Of a stretch of 64,000 nt of DNA, positions 18,226-32,392 are shown piece by piece. Position 1 is the stretch's first letter. Each line of letters opens with the position of its first letter. The translations under genes were made by a program, and so were the position numbers. The notes beneath the pieces are model-generated. The model made no database searches, was not told the DNA's origin, and worked only from the letters and a program-made list of their open reading frames with translations. This DNA comes from Caulobacter sp. NIBR1757 (GTDB lineage: Bacteria > Pseudomonadota > Alphaproteobacteria > Caulobacterales > Caulobacteraceae), in contig NZ_CP115463.1 of the NCBI RefSeq assembly GCF_027912495.1, positions 1,263,501 through 1,327,500 on the forward strand, read 5' to 3'.

Positions 18226-18242
18226 TATCAATTTAGTTGACA
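18226..18242. promoter_or_regulatory. MarR-regulon operator A (CoA-transferase operon)
   Basis: The site reads TGTCAACTAAATTGATA on the minus strand. It shares the core TCAA-N5-TTGA with the other operators of this cluster and lies 51 bp before the CoA-transferase start, in promoter position. Confidence 0.75.
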
Positions 18243-18292
18243 AAAAAGCCGCGCGGACTACGCCTTCTCAAAACTGAGAGGGGAAGCGCGCG

Positions 18293-19480
18293 ATGTCGGA
18301 TGGGCCATTAAAGGGGCTGGTCGTGGTCGAGACCGGCCAGCTGATCGCCGGGCCCTTCTGTGGCCAGCTGCTCGGCGACATGGGCGCCACGGTCATCAAG
18401 ATCGAGCCGCCGAAAGTCGGCGACCCGATGCGGGCCTGGGGCCAAGGGGCGCCGGTCTGGTGGGAGGTCATCGCCCGCAACAAGAAGTCGGTCAGCATCG
18501 ATCTGCGCAAACCCGAGGGCCAGGATCTGGCCCGGCGGCTGATCGACGGCGCCGACGTGCTGATCGAAAATTTCCGGCCGGGCACGCTGGAGGGCTGGGG
18601 CCTGGGGCCCGAGCGCCTGCACCAGAGCAATCCCGGGCTGATCGTCGTGCGCATGTCGGGCTACGGCCAGACCGGACCCTATTCCGACCGCGCCGGCTTC
18701 GGCGGCATCGGCGAGGCCATGGGCGGCTGGCGCAACATCGTCGGCGAGCCGGATCGGCCGCCCTCGCGCATGGGTGTCTCCATCGGCGACGCCCTGGCCG
18801 CCACCTATGGCTGCCTTGGCGCCCTGGCGGCGCTGCGCCATCGCGATGCGACGGGGCAGGGGCAGGTGGTCGATTCGGCGCTGTACGAGGCGGTGCTGCA
18901 GGTCATGGAAAGCCTGGTGCCGGAGTACACGGCCACCGGCGTCAGCCGTCAGCGGTCCGGGGCCATCCTGCCGGGAATCGCGCCGTCGAACGTCTATCCC
19001 TGCAGCGACGGGGAGTATCTGATCGGAGCCAATGGCGAGGGCGTGTTTCGCCGGCTGTGCGAGGCCATGGGCCGGCCGGAGCTGATCGATGATCCGCGCT
19101 ATGACAGCCACACGGCTCGGGGCCAAAACCAGACCGAACTGGACGATCTGATCGCCGACTGGACCCGGACATTGACGGTCGAGGCGCTGGAGGCCCTGAT
19201 GCTCAGGCACGGGGTGCCGGCGGGCCGCATCTACAAGCCGGCCGACATGCTGGCCGATCCGCATTTCGCGGCGCGCGGGGCCCTGATCGAGATGCCCGAC
19301 CATCCCCGCTTCCCGGGCCTGACCATGCAGAATGTCTTCCCCAAGCTGTCGGCGACGCCGGGATCGGTGCGCAGCATCGCGCCGCAGACCGTGGGTCAGC
19401 ACAACGAAGAGGTCCTCAGCGAACGGCTGGGGATGGATGCGGCGGACATCACGCGGCTGCAGACCGCGGGCGTCATCTAG
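18293..19480 (+). CDS. CaiB/BaiF (type III) CoA transferase
   Basis: A 395-residue enzyme of the family III CoA transferases, which move CoA between carboxylates through a catalytic Asp. The N-terminal GLVVVETGQLIAGPFCGQLL and GADVLIENFRPG are family hallmarks. The Asp in GVSIGDALAATYG is the likely nucleophile. The start has GAGAGGGG upstream. An AMP-forming CoA ligase follows 10 nt later. The pair would activate a carboxylic substrate as a CoA thioester. The exact substrate cannot be read from sequence. Confidence 0.9.
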   Translation: MSDGPLKGLVVVETGQLIAGPFCGQLLGDMGATVIKIEPPKVGDPMRAWGQGAPVWWEVIARNKKSVSIDLRKPEGQDLARRLIDGADVLIENFRPGTLEGWGLGPERLHQSNPGLIVVRMSGYGQTGPYSDRAGFGGIGEAMGGWRNIVGEPDRPPSRMGVSIGDALAATYGCLGALAALRHRDATGQGQVVDSALYEAVLQVMESLVPEYTATGVSRQRSGAILPGIAPSNVYPCSDGEYLIGANGEGVFRRLCEAMGRPELIDDPRYDSHTARGQNQTELDDLIADWTRTLTVEALEALMLRHGVPAGRIYKPADMLADPHFAARGALIEMPDHPRFPGLTMQNVFPKLSATPGSVRSIAPQTVGQHNEEVLSERLGMDAADITRLQTAGVI

Positions 19481-19490
19481 GGAACGAACC

Positions 19491-21029
19491 ATGCGTCTCA
19501 CCCAAACCCTCGGCCGGGCCGTGCTGGTCCGGCCGGAGGCCATCGCAACGATCGATGGCGACCGCGTCCGCACCTGGCGTGAGGTTCACGAGCGGGTGTC
19601 GCGCATCTCCGGCGCCCTGCGCGGCCTGGGCGTGAAGCCCGGCGACCGGGTGGCCGTGCTGGCCAACAATTGCGACGCCTACTACGAGACCTACTTCGCC
19701 ATCCTGTGGAGCGGGGCGGCCATTGTGCCGCTCAACACCCGCCTGGCCCCGGCCGAGACACGGTTCCAGCTGCAGGACGCCGGGGCGAGCGTCATGCTGT
19801 TCGGCGAGGAGTTCGCCGAGACCATCGCCCTTCTCAAGCCCCAGCTGCCCGGCATCGGCGTCTGGGTGGCGATGGACGGCGCCGATCCTTCGGCGGACTG
19901 CATCCTCGAAGACCTGGCGACGACCGGCCCCGCCGCGCCGGAGGTGGAGCGCAAGGCCGAGGATCTGGCCGGCATCTTCTACACCGGCGGCACCACCGGC
20001 CTGCCCAAGGGGGTGATGCTCAGCCACCGCTCGCTGGCCGCCCAGGCGGTCAACCTGACCATGTCGCTGAAGGTCGATCATACGATCGTCAATCTGCACT
20101 CGGCGCCGATGTTCCACCTGGCCGACATCGGCACCTTCATGGCCACCATGGTCGGCGGGACCCATGTCTTCGTGCGCAAGCTGGACGAGACCGTCATGCT
20201 CGACCTGATCGACCGCTGGGGCATCACCCACATCTTCACGGTGCCGGCGATGATCGACCGGCTGGCGCGGCATCCGAAGGGCGATGCGGCAAACGCCCTC
20301 AAGGTGCTGGGCTACGGCGGCGCGCCGATGCCGCTGGGGACCTATGACGTGGCGCGGGCGCGGTACCCGGAGGTCGATTTCGTCCAGGGCTTCGGCATGA
20401 CCGAGATGGGCGCCCATACCTTCCTGGAGGCGCAACACCACCGGTCGGGCGCCGATCCGGAGAAGATGAAGTCGGTCGGTCAGCCGGCCTATGGCTACGA
20501 GATCAAGGTCGTCGATCCGGACGGAAACGAGGTCCCGCGCCGCACCCTGGGCGAGATCATTGGCCGGGGCGACAACATGATGCTGGGCTACTGGAACCGG
20601 CCGGAGGAGACGGCGGCGGCGCTGAAGGACGGCTGGATGTGGTCGGGCGACGCCGGCTTCATGGACGAGGAGGGCTTCGTCTACATCACCGACCGCTTCA
20701 AGGACATGATCGTCAGCGGCGGCGAGAACGTCTACTCGATCGAGGTCGAGAACGTGGTCTCGCGGCACCCCGCCGTCGCCGAGTGCGCCATCATCGGTGT
20801 GCCTGATCCGCGCTGGGGCGAGCGGGTGCATGCGGTGGTGGTGCTCAAGGCCGGCGAGAGCCTGACGGTCGAGGCGCTGTCCGAGCACTGCCGGGCGGAG
20901 ATCGCCGGCTACAAGACGCCGCGCAGCCTGCAGGTGCTGGAGACGCCGCTGCCGAGGAGCGCGGCCGGCAAGGTGCTGAAGACCGAGCTGCGCGCGCCCT
21001 GGTGGGAGGGGCGGGAGAAGCGGGTCTAG
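19491..21029 (+). CDS. AMP-dependent acyl-CoA synthetase
   Basis: A 512-residue ANL-superfamily ligase. The P-loop-like motif is FYTGGTTGLPKGVMLSH, the A5 motif is QGFGMTEMGAH, A7 is MWSGDAGFMDEEGF and A8 is DRFKDMIVSGGENVYSIEVE. The catalytic Lys is in PRSAAGKVLK. It forms acyl-AMP and then acyl-CoA from a medium or aromatic carboxylic acid. It follows the CaiB gene by 10 nt in the same operon. Its TAG stop shares a CTAG with the convergent flavodoxin-like gene. Confidence 0.9.
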   Translation: MRLTQTLGRAVLVRPEAIATIDGDRVRTWREVHERVSRISGALRGLGVKPGDRVAVLANNCDAYYETYFAILWSGAAIVPLNTRLAPAETRFQLQDAGASVMLFGEEFAETIALLKPQLPGIGVWVAMDGADPSADCILEDLATTGPAAPEVERKAEDLAGIFYTGGTTGLPKGVMLSHRSLAAQAVNLTMSLKVDHTIVNLHSAPMFHLADIGTFMATMVGGTHVFVRKLDETVMLDLIDRWGITHIFTVPAMIDRLARHPKGDAANALKVLGYGGAPMPLGTYDVARARYPEVDFVQGFGMTEMGAHTFLEAQHHRSGADPEKMKSVGQPAYGYEIKVVDPDGNEVPRRTLGEIIGRGDNMMLGYWNRPEETAAALKDGWMWSGDAGFMDEEGFVYITDRFKDMIVSGGENVYSIEVENVVSRHPAVAECAIIGVPDPRWGERVHAVVVLKAGESLTVEALSEHCRAEIAGYKTPRSLQVLETPLPRSAAGKVLKTELRAPWWEGREKRV

Positions 21030-31471: not shown

Positions 31472-31593
31472 TGTCATCCTCCGGGGCCGCGTAGCGGCAA
31501 CCGGGGGACCCAACTTTCCGCGTGAAGATTCCCGGGAGTCTATCCAGAGCCGGCTTGGGTCCCCCGGTCCGCTGCGCGGCCGGAGGATGACAG
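31472..31593. repeat. Hairpin repeat family A, copy 2
   Basis: Same outer and inner arms as copy 1, with centre CCGCGTGAAGATT and CCAGAGCC. It is intact through TTGGGTCCCCCGG, so it shows what the empty site of the insertion sequence at 58726 looked like. Confidence 0.88.
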
Positions 31594-31610
31594 CTCTTTT
31601 TTGGAGGGTC

Positions 31611-32291
31611 TTACGCCGGAACCGGCGGCTCGCTGTAGGAGGCGCTTTTGGTGATCATCTCGTCGGGCGCGGCGATCATCGCCCGGTACAGCTTGTCCGG
31701 ATAGGCCTGGTGCGGCTTGGTCGGATCGTAGGGAGGCTGGGCCACCGGCGAGGGGCCGGTGTAGGGGGCGGGGGCCTTGAAGCGGGCGGCCTCTTCGGCG
31801 TTGATCCCGGCCTTGGCCAGGACGGCAGGATCGATCCAGCGGGCCGGGTCGATAGGCTCGTGGCTGGTGGCGACCTCCAGGGTCATGTGGTCCGGGCCGG
31901 CGAAGTAGATCGAGCGGCACATGCCGTGGTCGATGGGGCCGACGACGTTGACGCCATGGCTGCGGATGCGGTCGCGCATGGCCAGCAGGGCTTCGTCGCT
32001 GTCGGCCCGGAAGGCCAGGTGCTGCAGCGTGCCCGGCGCGCTGGGCCCGGCCCCGGTGCCGGCGTGGGTCTTGCCGAGCTCGATGGGGATGTCATCGACA
32101 TTGGGCAGCTGGACGATCGAGAAGTAGCCGTGGTCGTTCATCCGCAGGAAGGCGTGCAGGCCCCCCGGCACCCCGTGCATGTCGAACAGCGCCACCAGCG
32201 GACAGCCCATGACCTCGCTGAAGAAGGCGATGTGTTTCTTGATGTCGCCGGCCATGAAGGCCAGGTGGTGAATGCCGCTCGGCTGGGTCAT
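31611..32291 (-). CDS. VOC-family protein with C-terminal extension
   Basis: A 226-residue vicinal-oxygen-chelate protein. The metal ligands are likely the His in IHHLAFMAGD, the His in LQHLAFRAD and the Glu in HMTLEVATS. After the core (to about residue 145) comes a 75-residue Pro-rich tail, not part of the usual fold. The gene is divergent from the alpha/beta hydrolase across operator F, so both belong to the presumed MarR regulon. The reaction is unknown. Confidence 0.8.
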   Translation of the reverse strand: MTQPSGIHHLAFMAGDIKKHIAFFSEVMGCPLVALFDMHGVPGGLHAFLRMNDHGYFSIVQLPNVDDIPIELGKTHAGTGAGPSAPGTLQHLAFRADSDEALLAMRDRIRSHGVNVVGPIDHGMCRSIYFAGPDHMTLEVATSHEPIDPARWIDPAVLAKAGINAEEAARFKAPAPYTGPSPVAQPPYDPTKPHQAYPDKLYRAMIAAPDEMITKSASYSEPPVPA

Positions 32292-32375
32292 GGTTTCCTC
32301 TTATCGTTGTCGCCATTGAGGGCCGGGAAACGCCGTCGTGCAAGTCCAAAACGCTTGCCTGCCGCGACGTCGCGC

Positions 32376-32392
32376 TGTCAACTTAGATGACA
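32376..32392. promoter_or_regulatory. MarR-regulon operator F (VOC / hydrolase divergent promoter)
   Basis: TGTCAACTTAGATGACA is a nearly perfect palindrome, one mismatched pair about a central T. It lies in the 132-bp divergent gap and is the most symmetric copy of the operator family. Confidence 0.78.

What the first reader, a model, noticed from the sequence alone, without database searches (positions are those of the whole stretch)
18226..32392. A 17-bp palindrome marks every transcription unit of a MarR-controlled catabolic cluster
Seen: seven near-identical sites (18226, 23975, 24574, 25017, 25051, 28698, 32376), all in promoter gaps, core TCAA-N5-TTGA, consensus about YGTCAWSTARATTGAYA. 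They precede the CaiB-ligase operon, marR/VOC operon, SRPBCC gene, TonB receptor, SMP-30/GST-MFS and VOC/hydrolase pairs. I did not see it elsewhere in the 64 kb. Inference: MarR (24095) controls a complete uptake and breakdown module (TonB receptor, MFS, CoA activation, ene-reductase, GST, lactonase, two VOC proteins). The substrate is unknown, and I do not know this regulon from the literature.
Basis: partly seen in the sequence, partly recalled or inferred. Interest (0 to 1): 0.85.

Follow-up and report, generated by a model that had tools for sequence, protein, structure and literature searches.

The report
MarR operator regulon for catabolic uptake
A short palindromic DNA switch sits in front of the gene groups of an uptake-and-breakdown cluster in this bacterium, and the same switch recurs near relatives of the same MarR-type regulator in other bacteria, which points to a conserved control circuit for a nutrient that is still unknown.

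Summary
Seven 17-bp palindromes lie at the stated places, in promoter gaps; the window gives 9 hits against 0.30 expected. Of 52 genome places within 3 mismatches, eight score above 17 on a matrix made from the seven sites: these seven and one other, not conserved. In relatives the palindrome stays while promoters drift. Sixty-nine loci fetched only for a MarR relative hold 110 matrix hits, reversed sequence 1. MarR and palindrome coincide: 22 of 31 motif genomes among 299 of the family and 7 of 8 among 305 others of the order, there 94-127 bp before the MarR match. The converse is weaker: 10 of 32 and 11 of 18 MarR genomes lack a strict match. The gene-side half reads TTGAC in 36 of 50 sites, the far half in 21, so the operator probably doubles as a -35 box. 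Best reading: an autoregulated MarR repressor regulon with operator YGTCAAYTWARTTGACR. Binding, signal and substrate are untested. A new regulon of a known kind.

The parts
18226..18242 (.). operator upstream of the CaiB-ligase operon
   Evidence: 0 mismatches; 16 of 17 bp identical in own, G251 and G221; matrix score 28.5
18293..19480 (+). CoA-transferase family III (CaiB/BaiF type)
   Evidence: Pfam PF02515, 410.8 bits
19491..21029 (+). AMP-binding acyl-CoA ligase (start chosen by eye within the ORF; searches used 19476 or 19533)
   Evidence: PF00501; NF004837 above cut-off; best solved relatives named fatty-acyl-CoA synthase and feruloyl-CoA synthetase
21026..21613 (-). WrbA-type NAD(P)H:quinone oxidoreductase
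   Evidence: TIGR01755 and NF002999 above cut-off
21622..22773 (-). Old Yellow Enzyme family ene-reductase
   Evidence: PF00724
22739..23377 (-). carboxymuconolactone-decarboxylase-like (CMD) protein
   Evidence: PF02627
23380..23901 (-). VOC-superfamily protein 1; in relatives a site precedes it in 29 of 41 cases
   Evidence: PF00903
23975..23991 (.). operator in the VOC1 <-> marR gap
   Evidence: 1 mismatch; present in the same gap in all 5 close relatives
24095..24550 (+). MarR-family regulator
   Evidence: PF12802 above cut-off; relatives, alignment A1
24574..24590 (.). operator 14 bp before the SRPBCC start
   Evidence: 1 mismatch; a site also lies there in L102 and L103
24605..25015 (+). 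SRPBCC / Polyketide_cyc2 protein
   Evidence: PF10604
25017..25033 (.). upstream operator of the tandem pair before the TonB receptor
   Evidence: 3 mismatches, score 21.2; pair spacing 33-35 bp in the window and 9 other loci
25051..25067 (.). downstream operator of the tandem pair
   Evidence: 0 mismatches
25140..27350 (+). TonB-dependent outer-membrane receptor
   Evidence: PF00593 and PF07715
27736..28674 (-). SMP-30/gluconolactonase-like lactonase
   Evidence: PF08450
28698..28714 (.). operator between SMP-30 and GST-MFS
   Evidence: 3 mismatches, score 24.5; all 17 bp identical in G251 and G221
28780..29490 (+). GST, YfcG-like
   Evidence: PF02798; NF010579, 215 bits, below cut-off 332; 5hfk/3gx0
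29490..30842 (+). MFS transporter
   Evidence: PF07690
31611..32291 (-). VOC-superfamily protein 2
   Evidence: PF00903
32376..32392 (.). operator between VOC2 and the hydrolase
   Evidence: 1 mismatch on the - strand; present in the same gap of G251
32424..33572 (+). alpha/beta-hydrolase-like protein
   Evidence: PF00561

Best explanation
The palindromes are operators of the MarR-family protein encoded at 24095. A dimer binds YGTCAAYTWARTTGACR, with A/T-rich flanks, in the gap beside its own gene and in the promoters of the uptake and breakdown genes. In most units the half nearer the gene also serves as the -35 box (TTGACR), so bound MarR keeps RNA polymerase off, and a substrate or a CoA-ester intermediate releases it. 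The TonB-receptor promoter carries two operators 34 bp apart and so may be held down most tightly. Shown here: the sites, their positions, their conservation, and their co-occurrence with this MarR. Inferred: binding, repression, release by a ligand, and that the ligand is a pathway intermediate.
For: Seven sites at promoters, 9 hits against 0.30 by chance. Of 52 near places in the genome, eight score above 17, seven of them in the cluster. Sites recur before the same genes in five close relatives. 69 loci picked by the MarR protein alone hold 110 matrix hits against 1 in reversed sequence; 51 of 69 loci have at least one, including 11 of 11 where MarR is at least 60% identical. 96 of 110 hits lie -60 to 350 bp from a called start, random positions 27%. 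Co-occurrence: 22 of 31 motif genomes have the MarR among 299 genomes, backward control 3 hits against 47; 7 of 8 among 305 genomes outside the family, backward control 1 hit in the 398 searched, each with the site 94-127 bp before the start of the MarR match. Gene-side half TTGAC 36 of 50, far half 21 of 50, p 0.004, with T 40% and A 48% at 17 and 18 bp downstream, fitting a -10. Tandem pair spaced 33-35 bp in 10 loci, including two Brevundimonas.
Against: MarR without a strict match: 10 of 32 family genomes and 11 of 18 outside it. Of those ten, five have a one-mismatch match on the MarR contig within about 20 kb (G032, G053, G178, G280, G286), G081 and G123 have none; that search gave 22 strand hits against 7 for its control. 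18 of 69 MarR loci show no site in the sequence held, 13 of them at 50-60% identity. In that tier MarR often lies 4-20 kb from the sites. Only 20 of 69 marR genes have a site within 350 bp upstream. In the window marR has its own conserved TTGAC...CCTA element about 45 bp beyond the operator, so autorepression is not obvious, and the SRPBCC site lies too near its start for a -35. Downstream T is as high at 22-23 bp as at 17, so the -10 signal is weak. The genomes and loci are related, so p-values overstate independence. No binding or expression data.
Confidence: 0.83

Rival explanations
1. The sites are operators of another regulator of the region (for example the TetR at 33569) and MarR merely travels with the cluster.
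For: MarR sits several kb from the sites in many loci of the 50-58% tier; other regulators occur in some clusters, such as a further MarR-domain protein in L074.
Against: A homologue of the TetR was found only in G251 (also held as L100) among the loci mapped with the window's proteins, while sites persist where it is absent. Searching with the motif, without using MarR, also returns MarR genomes: 22 of 31 and 7 of 8, in the second set 94-127 bp from the site.
Confidence: 0.08
2. The repeated element is only a strong sigma-70-type promoter box (TTGAC) repeated in divergent promoters, not a regulator site.
For: The half site TTGACR equals a -35 box and is commoner on the gene side.
Against: Both halves, a fixed 5-bp centre and A/T flanks are kept where the rest of the promoters has drifted; a housekeeping box would not be nearly confined to one cluster of the genome nor track MarR.
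Confidence: 0.03
3. A MarR regulon, but MarR activates or acts as a mixed regulator rather than a simple repressor.
For: In the marR gap the operator lies about 45 bp upstream of a separate conserved TTGAC element, a position open to activation.
Against: At other promoters the operator covers the putative -35 or lies close to the start codon, which fits repression.
Confidence: 0.1

Closest known systems
CouR regulon of Rhodococcus jostii RHA1 (PMC4737184; abstract start and passages seen)
   Same: MarR-family repressor of an aromatic-acid catabolic regulon; inverted repeat with a 5-bp spacer overlapping the predicted -35 boxes; one repeat between divergent promoters.
   Different: CouR box is cATTGA-N5-TCAATg, half sites in the opposite order from TGTCAA-N5-TTGACA; a chain named CouR is only a weak match to the profile (28.8 bits); its effector p-coumaroyl-CoA is known, here unknown.
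DesR of Sphingobium sp. SYK-6 (PMC6888825; abstract start and passages seen)
   Same: MarR-type repressor of a catabolic regulon, autoregulated, with one operator overlapping a -35 region.
   Different: Operators GTTTGTGTCACATAC and GTTTGTGTAACATAC; vanillate and syringate pathway.
Saro_0803 of Novosphingobium aromaticivorans (PMC10046596; abstract start and passages seen)
   Same: Best NCBIfam match of the window MarR.
   Different: 28.4 bits against a cut-off of 200; inverted repeat GCAATA------TATTGC; controls a stilbene-degrading enzyme gene.

Membership tests
MarR family of transcriptional regulators | winged helix-turn-helix MarR domain | tested here: met
   MarR_2 PF12802 39.6 bits, cut-off 27; profile A1 matches chains named AdcR, TcaR, SlyA, MarR, CouR and HpaR
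MarR family of transcriptional regulators | recognises a palindromic operator in target promoters | tested here: inconclusive
   palindrome and co-occurrence shown; binding not testable here
MarR family of transcriptional regulators | operator beside its own gene | tested here: met
   site 23975 in the VOC1/marR gap; 20 of 69 loci have a site within 350 bp upstream of marR, 49 do not; 7 of 7 genomes holding both in the order test
MarR family of transcriptional regulators | homodimer with ligand pocket | not testable with these tools
   structure prediction switched off
CouR-type CoA-ester-responsive regulators | operator cATTGA-N5-TCAATg | tested here: not met
   operator here is TGTCAA-N5-TTGACA
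CouR-type CoA-ester-responsive regulators | release by an aromatic acyl-CoA | not testable with these tools
   needs a binding assay
Saro_0803 family (NF053777) | score above curated cut-off | tested here: not met
   28.4 bits against 200

The most novel reading that the evidence does not exclude
This MarR subfamily and its TGTCAA-N5-TTGACA operator form one ancient regulator-operator pair, carried by Caulobacterales, Hyphomonadaceae, Sphingomonadales and, by transfer, an actinobacterium (Nocardioides insulae, L154, site about 120 bp before the MarR match), which has been re-used for several catabolic clusters that share a VOC1 protein, a TonB receptor and a CoA ligase, with an acyl-CoA of an unrecognised natural product as the signal.
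Probability: 0.4. Interest if true: 0.6.

Novelty: new member of a known kind. Interest (0 to 1): 0.45.

Why it matters
It gives a testable operator and regulator for a set of catabolic clusters whose substrate is unknown. The operator can be used to predict co-regulated genes, to build a reporter strain, and to screen compounds until the substrate is found. Two genome sets give the same regulator-operator pairing, and the 34-bp tandem operator at the TonB receptor suggests that uptake may be the step under the tightest control.

Tried and rejected
Off-cluster member: 3291162 (score 22.7), upstream of a MaoC-like gene (named by eye), was tested and dropped because the best score in the 300 bp upstream of the orthologue in nine other genomes was at most 10.8. 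Promoter-box-only reading: rejected. Motif genomes without MarR (9 of 31): 20-kb loci from three of them (G085, G129, G114; L091, L092, L098) hold no relative found by the MarR profile among the called genes; in G085 and G129 the site lies near a gene that looks GntR-like by eye, so these may belong to another regulator; the other six were not examined. One off-cluster site of G221 lies before VOC2 and hydrolase homologues without a MarR relative in the 20 kb held (L099). Substrate: NCBIfam, PDB and plasmid searches gave only general names. Ten proteins of one relative's cluster (of 30 called on L074 and L097) were scanned with Pfam; they include a vanillate-O-demethylase-like Rieske oxygenase, SnoaL-like proteins and DUF3237, which hints at aromatic or polyketide-like compounds but does not settle it. 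Literature: in the open-licence library, and the passages seen of five papers showed no description of this operator; no search used the operator string with success, since 'marr' matched 'marrow'; subscription papers are not held; two searches found nothing. PMC13273656 (PheR) is an IclR-family case and was set aside. Not done: tree of MarR, large protein-database search, structure prediction (off).
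Full report
WHAT IS THERE. The window is G000:C1:1263501-1327500 of a single-contig 4.47-Mb genome. It is placed in the genus of G251, whose 63,035-base contig and MarR position equal those of a MAG titled Caulobacter sp. RYN_457. The seven sites are present as written. A search with up to 3 mismatches gives 9 hits at 8 places against a chance mean of 0.30. Exact TCAA-N5-TTGA holds in 3 of 7 sites; TCA-N7-TGA in 7 of 7 (read). 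The genes, by Pfam and NCBIfam: CaiB-type CoA-transferase and AMP ligase; WrbA-type reductase, Old Yellow Enzyme, CMD and VOC1; MarR; SRPBCC; TonB receptor; SMP-30; GST and MFS; VOC2; alpha/beta hydrolase.

GENOME-WIDE. On the matrix all 52 were scored (36, 16): the seven sites score 21.2 or more, 3291162 scores 22.7, the other 44 score below 17. Gene calls were made for 29 of the 52; of the 22 outside the cluster 19 lie inside a called gene and 3 do not (3291162, 1088673, 1349203). The crude caller also puts two of the seven true sites inside overlapping spurious-looking ORFs. 3291162 lies before a MaoC-like gene that is present in all ten genomes examined, and no site stands before it in the other nine. 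The looser pattern YRTCAWNNNNNWTGAYR finds 23 places, five in the cluster; of the other 18, 17 have at least three G/C in the central five bases and score below 17, the exception being 3291162. Its backward control gave 1 place, so loose palindromes of this kind are common in the genome.

CONSERVATION. The matrix was run on 28-40 kb around the MarR orthologue of five relatives (70-89% identity). Sites precede CaiB (G251, G221), stand in the VOC1/marR gap (5 of 5; only 16.5 in G160), before the TonB receptor (5 of 5), in the SMP30/GST gap (G251; before GST in G221), before the ligase (G274) and in the VOC2/hydrolase gap (G251). In alignments the 17 bp are kept while the flanks drift, all 17 identical in three genomes at SMP30/GST. 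In more distant clusters (MarR 46-58%) such sites stand before VOC1, TonB, MFS and others.

LINK TO MarR. Family test: MarR (E <= 1e-15) in 32 of 299 genomes; strict palindrome in 31 of 299, backward control 3 hits against 47; both in 22; p 8e-19. Of the ten MarR genomes without a strict match, five (G032, G053, G178, G280, G286) have a one-mismatch match on the MarR contig within about 20 kb; G070, G100 and G277 have matches on other contigs only; G081 and G123 have none (22 strand hits, control 7). Order test, 305 genomes outside the family, a stricter pattern: palindrome in 8, MarR in 18, both in 7, p 5e-9. In all seven the near edge of the site lies 94-127 bp before the start of the MarR match; 11 MarR genomes there lack the strict pattern. 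Protein-first test: 69 loci found with the MarR alignment, in records titled Caulobacter, Phenylobacterium, Brevundimonas, Hyphomonas, Henriciella, Novosphingobium, Sphingopyxis, Sphingobium, Hephaestia, Nocardioides and others including many MAGs. They hold 110 hits of score 17 or more in 1.21 Mb, reversed control 1. 51 of 69 loci have a site: 11 of 11 at >=60% identity, 16 of 29 at 50-60%, 22 of 23 at 44-50%, 2 of 6 below. 96 of 110 lie near a called start against 27% of random positions; the gene caller is crude and misplaces some genes. A site lies within 350 bp upstream of VOC1 in 29 of 41 cases, ACD 7 of 11, TonB 22 of 56, CaiB 7 of 21, marR 20 of 69, MFS 7 of 29, ACS 4 of 38, CMD 2 of 21, GST 2 of 27, hydrolase 1 of 19; reversed control 0 in all. 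Genes inside operons may lower the last figures. These loci and genomes are related and partly overlap between tests, so the p-values are guides only.

HOW IT PROBABLY WORKS. From 114 distinct sites the operator is YGTCAAYTWARTTGACR with A/T-rich flanks of about 4 bp. Among 50 distinct sites serving one direction the gene-side half reads TTGAC in 36 and the far half in 21 (p 0.004), with T 40% and A 48% at 17 and 18 bp downstream, though T is also 44% at 22-23; 46 sites between divergent genes and those without a called start were left out of that count. This suggests that the operator overlaps the -35 box, as reported for CouR and for one DesR target. The TonB promoter has a tandem pair 34 bp apart; ten loci including the window show a pair at 33-35 bp, four others pairs at 22-48 bp. 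In the VOC1/marR gap a second conserved TTGAC...CCTA element lies between the operator and marR and may be the marR promoter; there the operator is upstream, so autoregulation may work otherwise. Repression is inferred, not shown.

WHAT IS NOT KNOWN. The substrate and the signal. The ligase's best solved relatives include one named feruloyl-CoA synthetase, the SMP-30 protein is near a solved beta-propeller lactonase, and one relative's cluster adds a Rieske oxygenase of the vanillate demethylase type. These are hints only.

COMPARISON AND VERDICT. It is a MarR-family regulator by domain and works like CouR or DesR, but its operator differs from those given for CouR, DesR and Saro_0803, and it is far below the Saro_0803 family cut-off. 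In the searches made (one search was spoiled) I saw no paper describing it. I rate it a well-supported new regulon of a known kind. After checking, the confidence was lowered from 0.85 to 0.83 because five, not six, of the ten exceptions have a near match beside MarR and because 11 of 18 MarR genomes in the order test lack the strict pattern.

Noticed in passing
window 62171-63271 and 63458-64000: A second pair of Old-Yellow-Enzyme and SMP-30 homologues (50% and 59% identical to those of the cluster) lies at the right end of the window without a high-scoring site (best 9.6 at 62069).
   Followed up: partly
G000:C1:3291162-3291178 (L009, L172): A lone high-scoring palindrome (22.7) upstream of a MaoC-like gene, absent before the orthologue in nine other genomes.
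   Followed up: yes
L154 (Nocardioides insulae), 9863-9879: An actinobacterial locus carries a MarR relative (44%) with TGTCAACTCGGTTGACA about 120 bp before the match, near an acyl-CoA-dehydrogenase-like gene, suggesting transfer of the regulator-operator pair.
   Followed up: no
L091 and L092: In two family genomes without this MarR (at E <= 1e-15) the palindrome CGTCAATTTGATTGACG lies near a gene whose product looks GntR-like by eye, perhaps another regulator with a similar operator.
   Followed up: partly
L145, L146, L156 (Brevundimonas): Two MarR relatives per cluster: one with AGTCAASTWACTTGACA just upstream, the other with TGTCAAATAGATTGACG about 1.3 kb before it: a possible case of operator divergence between paralogues.
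   Followed up: no
window 30996-31409: EVE-domain gene between the MFS and VOC2 genes, with no site; also in the same place in G251.
   Followed up: no
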